Shown piece after piece: positions 26,366 to 37,186 of a stretch of 64,000 nucleotides of DNA (position 1 is its first letter; every line of letters starts with the position of its first letter). A program made the translations under genes and the position numbers. The stretch is from the NCBI GenBank assembly GCA_026392155.1, contig JAPLCP010000173.1:1-64000 (forward strand), read 5' to 3'. The notes beneath the pieces are model-generated. The model was not told the DNA's origin. It saw only the letters and a list, made by a program, of their open reading frames with translations, and searched no databases. The stretch is from Armatimonadota bacterium. GTDB lineage: Bacteria; Armatimonadota; Armatimonadia; Armatimonadales; Armatimonadaceae.

Positions 26366-27418
26366 ATGCAGAAGAAGATCTTAACGCGTCTTGGCGGGAG
26401 CGCTGTGACCCTGATCGGGCTGCTCGCGGGCTCGATGCTCTTTCCGCTCTACCTTCAGGATGTGGTCTACCGCGTGGTGATGCTCTGTGGGATCGCGATC
26501 ATCATGGCGGTCTCACTGAACCTGATCAATGGCTTCACAGGCCAGTTCTCGATTGGACATGCGGGTTTTCAAGCCGTGGGCGCCTATGTTGCGGCCTCGC
26601 TGACGGTCTACGGTCACGACAAGCTCTTTCCTTTTGTGCCAAAAAACGGGGACTTTTCCTCGCCGCTCTACTCCCTGCTCTCGGGTGGCCCCGCGATGCT
26701 GCTCTCGATGCTGGTGGGAGGGCTTGCGGCGGCGGGAATCGGCTATGTCGTCGGCCTGCCCAGCCTGCGCCTGCGCGGCGACTATCTGGCCATTGTGACA
26801 CTCGGGTTTGGGGAGATTATCCGGGTCGTGGTGGAGAACCTCGATGTGGTCGGGGGGCCGCGTGGCTTCTCAGGCGACCTGAAGTCTGGAGTACAAGTCC
26901 CGGCGCTGACCAACTTTTTCTGGGTCTATGGCACGGTACTCGTGGTAATTCTGGTGGCGCGCAATCTACGTTTCTCGGTACATGGCCTGTCCTATCTCTC
27001 GGTACGCGAGGACGAGATCGCGGCGCAGGCGATGGGGGTCAATACAACCACGGTAAAAGTGAAAGCCTTCGTGCTGGGAGCGTTTTTCGCGGGAGTGGCA
27101 GGCGCACTCTTTGCGCACTATGAGCGGACAATTCTCATCACGTCGTTTGGCTTTGTTCGCTCGTTCGATTTTGTGACCATGGTGGTGCTGGGAGGGCTCG
27201 GCTCGATCACAGGCGCAGCACTTGCCGCGGTCGTCTTGACCGCGCTCCCCGAGGTTTTGCGCTACACACTAGGATCAGAGTCCACAAAATACCGTCTTGT
27301 TGTCTATGCACTGCTACTCGTGATTATGATGCTGGTGCGGCCACAGGGCATTTTTGGCAGAGGGGAGCTTTCCCTGAAGCGCTGGTTTGGAAAAAAACAG
27401 GAGGTTGAAACAGGTTGA
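26366..27418 (+). CDS. livM: Branched-chain amino-acid ABC transporter permease (LivM type)
   Basis: SLNLINGFTGQFSIGHAGFQAVGAY; LGFGEIIRVVVENLDVVGGPRG. Confidence 0.92.
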   Translation: MQKKILTRLGGSAVTLIGLLAGSMLFPLYLQDVVYRVVMLCGIAIIMAVSLNLINGFTGQFSIGHAGFQAVGAYVAASLTVYGHDKLFPFVPKNGDFSSPLYSLLSGGPAMLLSMLVGGLAAAGIGYVVGLPSLRLRGDYLAIVTLGFGEIIRVVVENLDVVGGPRGFSGDLKSGVQVPALTNFFWVYGTVLVVILVARNLRFSVHGLSYLSVREDEIAAQAMGVNTTTVKVKAFVLGAFFAGVAGALFAHYERTILITSFGFVRSFDFVTMVVLGGLGSITGAALAAVVLTALPEVLRYTLGSESTKYRLVVYALLLVIMMLVRPQGIFGRGELSLKRWFGKKQEVETG

Positions 27419-28707
27419 ATAAACCATTTGTTTCTGAGGTTGATAAGAAAAACCGTGTTGCGGTTTTTGTCGATTTTGAGAATATTAAGCGATCGGTAGA
27501 CGATTTTTTTGAGAATGATCGTGTTGAGCTGAAGCTAGTCCTAGATGAGATTGCGCGGATGACACACGGGCGTATTGTTCTCAAGCGTGCCTATGCGGAC
27601 TGGAGTGTTTTTCACGACTATCGCTCTGATTTATTGGATAATGCGGTTGAGCCCGTCCAAACATTTCCCCTGACTCAAAAAGGAAAAAATGGCTCCGATA
27701 TTCGGATGGCAGTGGATGTGGTGGAGTTTGTCCTTCGGCAGCCCGAGGTCACGCATGTGGTCGTGATCTCGGGTGACGCGGGCTTTACGCCGCTGGTGGT
27801 AAAACTGCGCGAGCTAGGCCTCCAAGTGCTGGGAGTTGGGGTGCGGGCCAGCACGTCTAACTATCTGATCAAGGCATGCGACCGGTTTATCTTCTACGAT
27901 GATCTGCGCGACATTCCAAGCACGGGTGCAAGCTCTGATCCCTCGGGACTACTGATGCGTGCCTTGACGGCGATGGGAAATCGCTCCGTGCCCGGCTCGG
28001 CGCTGAAGATCCAGATGCGTCGCCTTGATCCGCTCTTTGATGAGAGCCGTCTTGGCTTTAACTCGTTTCTGGAGTTCCTCCGAGCGAACCTGGAGCTCGT
28101 CGATGTCCACAAGCCGCCCGTTGGGGATGTGACTGTCGCGCCGCATGGCTCGCTCTCGCTTGAGGAAAAAGTGGCCTACACGCCGCCGTCCGCCTCAGAC
28201 AAGATGCGCTTCTGGCTACGCGAGAATAACTTCCGCTACGTGGCCTGTGACGAGCGCCATCAGATTATCACGGCTCTCTACACCATCTTCCAGAATGCGG
28301 AAGTTGAGGGCAGGATCTCTCTCAAAGAGGCCAAAGACCGGCTCCATGCCTGGTTTGAGGAGCACCATCCGACCGTCTCCTGGGACTCGGTAAACTCGAC
28401 GGTCTATCACTTGTTCTACACCTGGTGCTTTGACTTTGACCGGAGTGAGGAAGCGGAGAGCAAGCAGCTCTGGGATCGCCTGACGACGCTTCAGACCGAT
28501 GTGCTGAGCGCCGATGACCTGATCGAAAAGACCGAGCAGGGGATCGCCCGCAAGCTCTGGGAGCGGGAGCGGGAAGAGATTGATGCGGACGCGCTCAATG
28601 CTTGGCTCTACGATGGTAACCCAGAGGCACTGGAAAGTGTCAAGGAGCTAATTGAGATCGTCTCCGCACCCGACTACACCACGGTGGGACGCGTCGGGGG
28701 CGGCTAA
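27415..28707 (+). CDS. NYN-domain (LabA/DUF88-like) predicted ribonuclease with OST-HTH/LOTUS-like domain
   Basis: VAVFVDFENIKRSV...KNGSDIRMAVDVVEFVLRQPEVTHVVVISGDAGFTPLVVKLRELG; then SGLLMRALTAMGNRSVPGSALKIQMRRLDPLFDESRLGFNSFLEFL. Confidence 0.85.
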   Translation: MNKPFVSEVDKKNRVAVFVDFENIKRSVDDFFENDRVELKLVLDEIARMTHGRIVLKRAYADWSVFHDYRSDLLDNAVEPVQTFPLTQKGKNGSDIRMAVDVVEFVLRQPEVTHVVVISGDAGFTPLVVKLRELGLQVLGVGVRASTSNYLIKACDRFIFYDDLRDIPSTGASSDPSGLLMRALTAMGNRSVPGSALKIQMRRLDPLFDESRLGFNSFLEFLRANLELVDVHKPPVGDVTVAPHGSLSLEEKVAYTPPSASDKMRFWLRENNFRYVACDERHQIITALYTIFQNAEVEGRISLKEAKDRLHAWFEEHHPTVSWDSVNSTVYHLFYTWCFDFDRSEEAESKQLWDRLTTLQTDVLSADDLIEKTEQGIARKLWEREREEIDADALNAWLYDGNPEALESVKELIEIVSAPDYTTVGRVGGG

Positions 28708-28728: not shown

Positions 28729-29625
28729 ATGAGCATCGCCAACCAGGCCTGGAGCTTCTGGAGAACCGTTAGTGAAGTCTCTCCTCGCGTCATCCGCGAG
28801 GAGATGACCCGCGACTACCGGCTGGCCCTCGTCGGCGATGAGGCGGATCGGGCTGCTTTTCGCCAGCTCTTACTGCCCGAGAGTGCCAGTCGTGTGGAGC
28901 GAGAAGACGGCGGGACTCGTCTCTTAGAGCTGCCCCGTGCCCCCGATGAAGGCACCTCGGCGGGCTGTGCGGCGACGTTCTATCTTGGAGCTACTGGTGA
29001 GCCCGTCGGGGTTCGTGGCCCCAATGGGCTGCCTTTTGTGGGCACACAGCAGCAAGCCCTGGAGTGGGTGGCACAGATGAAGCCCGATCTCTGTATCGCC
29101 TTTGCCCGGTATCTGCCGGGAATCCGTCCTATGGCCTGCAAGCGGCTGATGCTCCGGGCCAGTGAGACCAATGCGCGCTTTGCCTTTCTCTCGGCACTGC
29201 CAGGAATCTTGCCCGTAACCTTGCCTTTCTTGCCAGCATCGTCGGCGATGGATGTCTTGGTGCTGACCAAGAACCAGGCGATGCTGGTGATGCGTCTTGC
29301 TGCGGCACATGGCCATCCGCCGGGCTATACCAAGCAAGTTCGCGAGGTACTCGGAACGGTCGCAGGGGCGATGGGCTGGCGCTTGCTGGCCCGTGAGATT
29401 GTCGGGATGATTCCCGCCGGAATAGGGGTAGTCGCTAAGACGGCTATCGCCTACTCCGGCACGATCACGGTGGGAAAGGCTGCTCTTTTTTACTACCAGA
29501 AAGGCCGCCAGATGACCGCCGACGAGATCCGCCAGGTGCATAAAGAGAGCGAGGCGGCGGCGCAGTCACGGGCGGAGCAGCTTGTCAAGAGCCCTCCGAG
29601 CCCTGAGGAGCTGACGGAACTCTAG
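28729..29625 (+). CDS. Hypothetical protein, possibly membrane-associated (DUF697-like C-terminus)
   Basis: 298 aa ORF in the same direction; AIAYSGTITVGKAALFYYQKGRQMTADEI C-terminal region; family assignment tentative. Confidence 0.55.
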   Translation: MSIANQAWSFWRTVSEVSPRVIREEMTRDYRLALVGDEADRAAFRQLLLPESASRVEREDGGTRLLELPRAPDEGTSAGCAATFYLGATGEPVGVRGPNGLPFVGTQQQALEWVAQMKPDLCIAFARYLPGIRPMACKRLMLRASETNARFAFLSALPGILPVTLPFLPASSAMDVLVLTKNQAMLVMRLAAAHGHPPGYTKQVREVLGTVAGAMGWRLLAREIVGMIPAGIGVVAKTAIAYSGTITVGKAALFYYQKGRQMTADEIRQVHKESEAAAQSRAEQLVKSPPSPEELTEL

Positions 29626-29670: not shown

Positions 29671-30954
29671 CTAGCTGCCGAACTCCACCAGAAAGCGCGG
29701 GCAGATCTGCTGGGTATCGTAGACGATCATCTCGTTGTTGGCGACGGTGCACTTGCCGGCCTCTGCAAACGTCGAGTCGTAGCCATCTTTGCGTGGGTCA
29801 AGTGCGGAGTTTGCTCTCTGAGGGCGGAACACTTTGCCCATGGCGACATCGCAGAGGAACATGAAGCAGTGATTGTCGCTCTTACCGCGCCAGTAGCCAT
29901 AGGCATAGTTCAGCGACTTGGTGCTCTGGTCCGAGAAGTAGATACCGTTTCCAAAGGCACGTCCACAGCAGTGTGATGCTGAGGCGGGAGCGATGACAAA
30001 GCCGCTACGCAGGATCGAGAGCAGGTTGCTGGCTTGCGTCCCATGCCAGAGCTCCTGCACGTTGCCGATTTTCTTGCTGTGCGCCTCAAACTTCTGGCTC
30101 ATGGCGGCGATCTCGATCTTAAAGACTCGCTTTACGTCTAGGTGAGCGCAGGCATGCATCGCTTTTTGGGTGCTTTGGTACTTGCACCGGATGCGCTCGA
30201 TCTCGTCTTGATCTGTGACCAGCTCCAGCCGCGCTTCAAAGAGCTTGGGAGCGGGGGCGGCCTCTTTTGTGCTGTCTTCGTCGGCCTTGAGGATGAGCGC
30301 CAGGCTGGCTTCCAGTGCATCGAGAATCCCGTTTTGCTTCTGGACAGCCTCGGTGTCGGGGAAGAGCACTTTGGGGTCGGGCTTGGCGCGTCCGATGTTC
30401 TGTGGGATGAGCATCAAGTAGTCGTTGAGGGTTGGGATGAAACATGCGTGGCTCCAGTCGCTCGCCGCCACAAACTGCCCGATGGTGCTGAGAAGCGCCC
30501 GTGCTTCGGTGAGGGCATCCTGGGTGACCACTCCGAGGGGCGTGGAGAACGTCCCCTGACTCTCGTCGTAGGTCATCGTGGTCGCTTCGAGAATCCGGTG
30601 GACATTGACCCGCGCCAGATACTGCACCAGCGCTTGCGTCTCCGGGGAGCTGGTGACGATCTGCTCGGCAGCGACTTTTGCCAGCGTCTCTCCCTGAAGG
30701 TTACTATTGCCCGCCGTATTGGCCAGCGTCTTTTGGGGCCGGTAGCCCTTGCCTTCTTTCTCGCGGCACTTGGCGTCTAGCTGGTACTCGCTATAGCTGG
30801 GAAAGACCTTGCGCTGCCCGTCTTCCCCGACCCGTCCCCAGTGCGTCTCACAGGAACCGTCGGAGAGGAGTTTGATGTTCCAGAACTTGTTGTTGTTGCC
30901 TTCAATATTGGTCAGTACATACCGTGCTTCTTTGACCACGCTTATCGTTGCCAT
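29671..30954 (-). CDS. Poly(ADP-ribose) polymerase homologue: WGR domain, PARP regulatory domain, ART catalytic domain
   Basis: WGR: NNKFWNIKLLSDGSCETHWGRVGEDGQRKVF; PRD: MTYDESQGTFSTPLGVVTQDALTEARALLSTIGQ and LIPQNIGRAKPDPKVLFPDTEAVQKQNGILDALEASLAL; catalytic: LWHGTQASNLLSILRSGFVIAP, FGNGIYFSDQSTKSLNYA, NNEMIVYDTQQICPRFLVEF. Confidence 0.93.
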   Translation of the reverse strand: MATISVVKEARYVLTNIEGNNNKFWNIKLLSDGSCETHWGRVGEDGQRKVFPSYSEYQLDAKCREKEGKGYRPQKTLANTAGNSNLQGETLAKVAAEQIVTSSPETQALVQYLARVNVHRILEATTMTYDESQGTFSTPLGVVTQDALTEARALLSTIGQFVAASDWSHACFIPTLNDYLMLIPQNIGRAKPDPKVLFPDTEAVQKQNGILDALEASLALILKADEDSTKEAAPAPKLFEARLELVTDQDEIERIRCKYQSTQKAMHACAHLDVKRVFKIEIAAMSQKFEAHSKKIGNVQELWHGTQASNLLSILRSGFVIAPASASHCCGRAFGNGIYFSDQSTKSLNYAYGYWRGKSDNHCFMFLCDVAMGKVFRPQRANSALDPRKDGYDSTFAEAGKCTVANNEMIVYDTQQICPRFLVEFGS

Positions 30955-31185
30955 GTCTCACTTCACCTTGCCTTTAATCTCTCGCCCCGTGGTGTGCGGC
31001 TTCACCAGAAGACTCCAGAAGTCAGTGCTTAGGCGGAAACTATTGGAGGTATTGTGAGGCGATCTCTTCTTGGCGAAAGGGGAAGCCACTCTTCACCGAA
31101 TCAAGGCCTAGGCTCCCGGTGCCAACGGAGATCCACAGCGACGACCCAATCTCTCCGCGACGCTCCCCTTGCTTGCGTATTTTGG

Positions 31186-36605: not shown

Positions 36606-36869
36606 ATGGTGAAAACACGTCTCGTTAAGATTGGCAACTCTCAAGGTATCCGGATTCCCAAGCTCTTGCTGGAGCAAACTAAGCTCACGGATGATGTGGA
36701 GCTGACGGTGGAAGCGGGGCAGCTCATCGTGCGCGCCGCCCATCCTGTCCGCCACGGCTGGGACGCTCAGTTTCAGGCAATGGCAGAGGCAGGGGACGAC
36801 GCTCTTCTCGACGGTGAGGCACTAGGACACACTCCCACAAACTGGGAGGCCGACGAATGGAGCTGGTAG
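36606..36869 (+). CDS. mazE: MazE/AbrB-type antitoxin
   Basis: MVKTRLVKIGNSQGIRIPKLLLEQTKLTDDVELTVEAGQLIVRAAHPVRHGW. Confidence 0.9.
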   Translation: MVKTRLVKIGNSQGIRIPKLLLEQTKLTDDVELTVEAGQLIVRAAHPVRHGWDAQFQAMAEAGDDALLDGEALGHTPTNWEADEWSW

Positions 36870-37186
36870 TACGGCGCTTCGAGGTCTGGCTGGTGAACCT
36901 TGATCCGACTGTGGGCAGCGAGATTCAGAAAACCCGTCCCTGTCTCATCGTCTCCCCCGACGAGCTGAACCGCAATATCGCCACCGTGATCGTCGCCCCG
37001 ATGACCACGCGTGGCAAGAACTACCCCACGCGCATCCCCTGCGAGTTCCAGGAAAAGTCTGGCCAAGTGGTCTTGGATCAGCTCCGCACCGTAGATAAAA
37101 CCCGCCTCACGAAGCGCCTCGGCTCCCTCAGTGACGATGAACAACGCGCCGTCCTCCACGCCCTCGCCGAACTCTTCGCGGAGTGA
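36857..37186 (+). CDS. mazF: MazF/PemK-type endoribonuclease toxin
   Basis: RRFEVWLVNLDPTVGSEIQKTRPCLIVSPDELNRNIATVIVAPMTTRGKNYPTRIPC; 13-nt overlap with mazE. Confidence 0.92.
   Translation: MELVVRRFEVWLVNLDPTVGSEIQKTRPCLIVSPDELNRNIATVIVAPMTTRGKNYPTRIPCEFQEKSGQVVLDQLRTVDKTRLTKRLGSLSDDEQRAVLHALAELFAE

What the first reader, a model, noticed from the sequence alone, without database searches (positions are those of the whole stretch)
29671..30954. Bacterial PARP with a complete PARP2/3-like WGR-PRD-ART architecture
One 427-aa ORF has a WGR domain, a recognisable PARP regulatory domain, and an ART domain. By motif alignment to human PARP1, H304 corresponds to H862, Y339 to Y896, S347 to S904, Y350 to Y907 and E408 to E988. 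The full H-Y-E triad predicts a polymerising rather than mono-transferring enzyme. PARPs are sporadic in bacteria and their physiology is poorly known. No macrodomain or PARG-like eraser gene is evident in this window.
Basis: partly seen in the sequence, partly recalled or inferred. Interest (0 to 1): 0.72.

Follow-up and report, generated by a model that had tools for sequence, protein, structure and literature searches.

The report
Bacterial DNA-break PARP with genomic erasers
The window holds an intact bacterial version of the human DNA-damage enzyme PARP, and the same genome also carries the enzymes that would remove its poly(ADP-ribose) mark, so this bacterium probably has a complete, reversible PAR cycle; such bacterial PARPs are rare but already known.

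Summary
The WGR and ART domains pass Pfam's cut-offs. The regulatory domain scores just below (25.3 against 26.8 bits), but the model and PARP1/PARP2 fold matches support it. H304, Y339, S347, Y350 and E408 align with PARP1 H862, Y896, S904, Y907 and E988.

'H-Y-E therefore polymerising' is too simple: PARP3 and PARP4 are H-Y-E mono-transferases (PMC10711553). Better support is that two PARP1 elongation residues absent from PARP4 (H826, K903) are kept as H267 and K346. One (M890) is Ala333 here.

No eraser gene was found in the window, but the genome has a bacterial-type PARG (best PDB match 3sig, 2.3e-61), a MACROD-like macrodomain and several ARH-family genes.

The gene is inherited in its genus and under purifying selection. 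Its nearest relatives outside its phylum lie on megaplasmids and large phages, a lineage apart from the second PARP type in its order. It is a new member of a known kind, with an apparently complete PAR cycle. Activity, DNA dependence and chain length are untested.

The parts
29671..30954 (-). PARP gene, 427 aa (WGR-helical domain-ART)
30730..30915 (-). WGR domain, residues 14-75; W39-G40-R41 motif, N22 at the PARP1 N567 position
   Evidence: Pfam WGR 1.5e-10; residue table; the only WGR domain found in the genome
30283..30684 (-). Helical/PARP regulatory domain, residues 91-224; L140, L211, D212 and L214 at PARP1 L698, L765, D766 and L768; V143 at L701
   Evidence: Pfam PARP_reg 1.8e-5; helices in the model
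29674..30246 (-). ART catalytic domain, residues 237-427; H304, Y339, E408 triad; H267 and K346 elongation-site residues; A333 at the M890 position
   Evidence: Pfam PARP 2e-32; fold TM 0.85 to PARP1 ART; residue table
30955..31185 (-). Intergenic leader; the last ~90 bases before the ATG are conserved with the congener
   Evidence: pairwise alignment

Best explanation
A DNA-break-responsive poly(ADP-ribose) polymerase. The WGR domain would bind a DNA end or nick and, through the helical domain, relieve its block on the ART active site, as in PARP1/2. The ART would use NAD+ to attach ADP-ribose to itself and nearby proteins and extend it into PAR. The bacterial-type PARG encoded elsewhere in the genome would cut the chains, and MACROD-like and ARH-family enzymes would remove or recycle the last ADP-ribose. 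Shown here: gene, domains, fold, catalytic and elongation residues, purifying selection, and the presence of the eraser genes. Inferred: DNA activation, polymer formation, targets and any role in damage recovery.
For: Three-domain architecture and fold. Catalytic triad plus H826 and K903 equivalents conserved through the same-phylum, phage, megaplasmid and Bacillota sequences aligned, except H826 in two outliers. H826E PARP1 makes short polymers (PMC8602370), K903A converts PARP1 to mono-ADP-ribosylation, and PARP4 lacks both (PMC10711553). The bacterial PARPs HaPARP and CdPARP are DNA-dependent polymerases paired with a DUF2263 PARG (PMC4245714, PMC5966428). Own PARG keeps the GGG-X7-QEE signature and matches PARG 3sig at 2.3e-61; MACROD-like macrodomain 2.8e-53 to MACROD2. 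PARP and PARG co-occur in 5 of 292 genomes of the phylum where 0.4 are expected. dN/dS about 0.12.
Against: No activity data. M890 is Ala333 here, although most relatives have Met or Leu. The helical domain lacks the PARP1 D770 position and is just below the Pfam cut-off. PARP and PARG are on different contigs and not an operon. Co-occurrence is largely from one family and vanishes within the order (4 seen, 3.7 expected). The relatives on phages and Pseudomonadota megaplasmids that were searched have no PARG of this family. Interdomain arrangement of the model is uncertain (full-length TM about 0.57).
Confidence: 0.66

Rival explanations
1. It is an active mono-ADP-ribosyltransferase, like PARP3 or PARP4, that keeps H-Y-E but does not elongate chains.
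For: PARP3 and PARP4 show that H-Y-E is not sufficient (PMC10711553); A333 replaces M890, N406 replaces Y986; the ART domain aligns to PARP4 over query residues 242-426.
Against: H267 and K346, the equivalents of H826 and K903, are kept, and both are absent from PARP4 (H826 also from PARP3); no acidic residue in place of Y986; the genome has a PARG, whose substrate is PAR.
Confidence: 0.2
2. A mobile-element PARP from the phage/megaplasmid pool, kept for conflict with phages (for example modifying host or phage proteins or depleting NAD+) rather than for DNA repair.
For: Closest relatives outside the phylum are large phages and 0.8-1.2 Mb megaplasmids; jumbo-phage PARPs have been proposed to modify host proteins (PMC7824862).
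Against: Housekeeping neighbours, conserved place with the congener, purifying selection, composition like the window (GC 0.581 against 0.588); no PADLOC hit for the PARP.
Confidence: 0.1
3. A DNA-binding protein with a degenerate or inactive ART.
For: None beyond absence of assays.
Against: Intact triad, intact fold, purifying selection.
Confidence: 0.04

Closest known systems
Herpetosiphon aurantiacus PARP (Haur_4763) with its DUF2263 PARG (Haur_1618)
   Same: Bacterial PARP plus bacterial-type PARG in one genome; DNA-dependent polymerase (PMC4245714, PMC5966428)
   Different: Sequence not available here, so relatedness was not measured; different phylum
Clostridioides difficile CD160 PARP (QEW_4625)
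   Same: WGR-PARP_reg-PARP_cat architecture, H-Y-E, partner PARG (PMC5966428)
   Different: Different phylum; no direct sequence comparison made here
Human PARP2 and PARP1
   Same: WGR-HD-ART order, triad, H826 and K903 equivalents, fold
   Different: No zinc fingers or BRCT; shorter loop before the catalytic Glu; M890 is Ala; D770 position missing; no HPF1 match in the genome, though that search had no positive control
Xanthomonas jumbo phage XacN1 PARP (BBA65562.1) and Klebsiella/Stenotrophomonas phage homologues
   Same: Full-length WGR-HD-ART relatives at 32-36% identity; same larger group in the tree
   Different: Phage-borne; no bacterial-type PARG in the three phage genomes searched, but each has a macrodomain
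WGR domain-containing proteins on Pseudomonas, Vibrio and Variovorax megaplasmids
   Same: Nearest relatives found outside the phylum, 38-44% identity over 97-100% of the query
   Different: Annotated only as WGR proteins; none of the six megaplasmids of these genera that were searched carries a PF10021 PARG

Membership tests
PARP (ARTD) family, WGR-HD-ART class | ART domain of the PARP family | tested here: met
   PF00644 2e-32; fold TM 0.85 to PARP1 ART
PARP (ARTD) family, WGR-HD-ART class | H-Y-E catalytic triad | tested here: met
   H304, Y339, E408
PARP (ARTD) family, WGR-HD-ART class | WGR domain | tested here: met
   PF05406 1.5e-10, W39-G40-R41
PARP (ARTD) family, WGR-HD-ART class | Helical regulatory domain | tested here: met
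   PF02877 1.8e-5, 25.3 bits against a 26.8 cut-off; helical bundle in the model and full-length fold matches to PARP1/2
PARP (ARTD) family, WGR-HD-ART class | Activation by DNA breaks | not testable with these tools
   needs assay
Poly- (not mono-) ADP-ribosylating PARP | Elongation-site residues H826, K903, M890 of PARP1 | tested here: inconclusive
   H267 and K346 kept; A333 in place of M890
Poly- (not mono-) ADP-ribosylating PARP | PAR chain synthesis | not testable with these tools
   needs assay
Bacterial-type PARG (partner gene) | PF10021 domain and GGG-X6-8-QEE signature | tested here: met
   G000:C87:67223-67663, 5.7e-47; GGGFLSGARAQEE; 3sig 2.3e-61

The most novel reading that the evidence does not exclude
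A lineage of WGR-HD-ART PARPs that circulates on large phages and megaplasmids has settled in the chromosomes of this bacterial phylum, where it works with a resident PARG and macrodomain as a complete, regulated PAR cycle; some members of the same family (two genera) carry it beside a second, separately descended PARP.
Probability: 0.35. Interest if true: 0.55.

Novelty: new member of a known kind. Interest (0 to 1): 0.4.

Why it matters
Whether bacteria run a real PAR cycle, and for what, is open; D. radiodurans shows PAR and a PARG but no PARP homologue (PMC6445106). A genome with an intact WGR-HD-ART PARP, a PARG close to solved structures, a MACROD-like hydrolase and ARH-family genes would make the question directly testable, and the link to phage and megaplasmid PARPs suggests one route by which PARPs spread among bacteria.

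Tried and rejected
Defence-system membership: no PADLOC match for the PARP, and neighbours are an ABC transporter, NYN protein, pfkB and RecJ. Conserved operon: none; neighbours differ between genera. Recent import by composition: GC like the window. PARP-PARG linkage within the order: no excess. NCBIfam names no family for the PARP.

Full report
The ORF is real and at the stated place, on the minus strand: ATG at 30954, stop at 29671, 427 aa. Pfam finds PARP (2e-32), WGR (1.5e-10) and PARP_reg (1.8e-5; 25.3 bits against a cut-off of 26.8). PARP_reg is often missed by Pfam in bacterial PARPs although a helical domain is modelled there (PMC5966428), and the same is seen here: in relatives the score runs from 52.2 bits down to no match, while the model has the helix bundle at 91-224 and Foldseek places the whole protein against human PARP2 and PARP1 bound to DNA breaks. 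The ART domain alone matches PARP1 ART at TM 0.85, 2.5 A.

The inference from H-Y-E to polymerase is weak, because PARP3 and PARP4 carry H-Y-E and are mono-transferases; the elongation (acceptor) site matters, with K903, H826 and M890 of PARP1 (PMC10711553), and H826E gives short chains (PMC8602370). Here H267 and K346 stand at H826 and K903 and are conserved across the aligned same-phylum, phage, megaplasmid and Bacillota sequences (H826 missing only in two outlying rows); A333 stands at M890, where most relatives have Met or Leu; N406 stands at Y986. On balance a polymerase is more likely than a mono-transferase, but this is inference.

Erasers. In the genome (4.77 Mb, 228 contigs, 96.6% complete) PF10021 bacterial-type PARG is at C87:67223-67663 (5.7e-47), keeps GGGFLSGARAQEE and matches the bacterial PARG structure 3sig at 2.3e-61 and the D. 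radiodurans TIGR02452 protein (bacterial-type PARG) at 44% identity. Three macrodomain matches, the best MACROD-like, 2.8e-53 to MACROD2, and several ARH-family (PF03747) matches are also present. So a writer, a PAR eraser and a candidate terminal eraser are all there. Across the 292 genomes held of the phylum, 9 have a PARP above cut-off and 13 a PF10021 PARG; 5 have both, 0.4 expected. Much of this is shared ancestry: within the order there is no excess, and the genomes are not independent.

Kinship. Two PARP types occur in the order: type A (the window; 84% in the congener, 65-67% in other genera, 40% in a more distant family) and type B, closer to Bacillota plasmid PARPs; two genomes carry one of each. 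The nearest relatives of type A found outside the phylum are on megaplasmids of Pseudomonas, Vibrio and Variovorax (38-44% identity, full length) and large phages of Xanthomonas, Klebsiella and Stenotrophomonas (32-36%); the tree joins them with type A (93/95) and keeps the same-phylum type A rows together (86/93). The XacN1 PARP was already noted in the literature (PMC7824862). Ten such records have no PF10021 PARG (that search rang in no control, but the same model does find PARG in the window's genome); all three phages searched have a macrodomain.

Place and history. Upstream neighbours keep their order in the congener, the PARP sits at the same place, and dN/dS is about 0.12. Neighbours differ in other genera, so no partner is implied by position. 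No defence system was found for it.

Taxon. The phylum is probably Armatimonadota, which is an inference from memory and not tested. A 2014 survey (PMC4245714) and a 2018 one (PMC5966428) each found bacterial PARPs in six phyla; neither text mentions Armatimonadota.

Verdict: observation confirmed; a new member of a known kind, a bacterial WGR-HD-ART PARP with erasers elsewhere in the genome. Activity, DNA dependence and chain length remain untested.

Noticed in passing
G009:C249 about 1118-2849 (L004, L060): A type B PARP is followed within about 90 bases by a macrodomain match on the same strand, suggesting a writer-eraser operon.
   Followed up: partly
G009 and G018: Each genome has one type A and one type B PARP; a 2014 survey knew only one bacterium with two PARPs (PMC4245714).
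   Followed up: partly
G010:C188 and G013:C32: PF10021 and PF05028 PARG-like genes lie a few kilobases apart in genomes without a PARP.
   Followed up: no
window 36606-37186 (+): MazE-like and PemK-like toxin-antitoxin pair.
   Followed up: no
window 27415-28707 (+): NYN-domain protein with a weak OST-HTH/LOTUS match, near the PARP and conserved in the congener.
   Followed up: no
window 28729-29625 (+): 298-aa protein without a Pfam, NCBIfam or PADLOC match, 69% identical in the congener.
   Followed up: no
L069 about 1548-1910 (Klebsiella phage 05F01): Macrodomain, annotated as a putative phosphatase, about 5 kb from the phage PARP.
   Followed up: no
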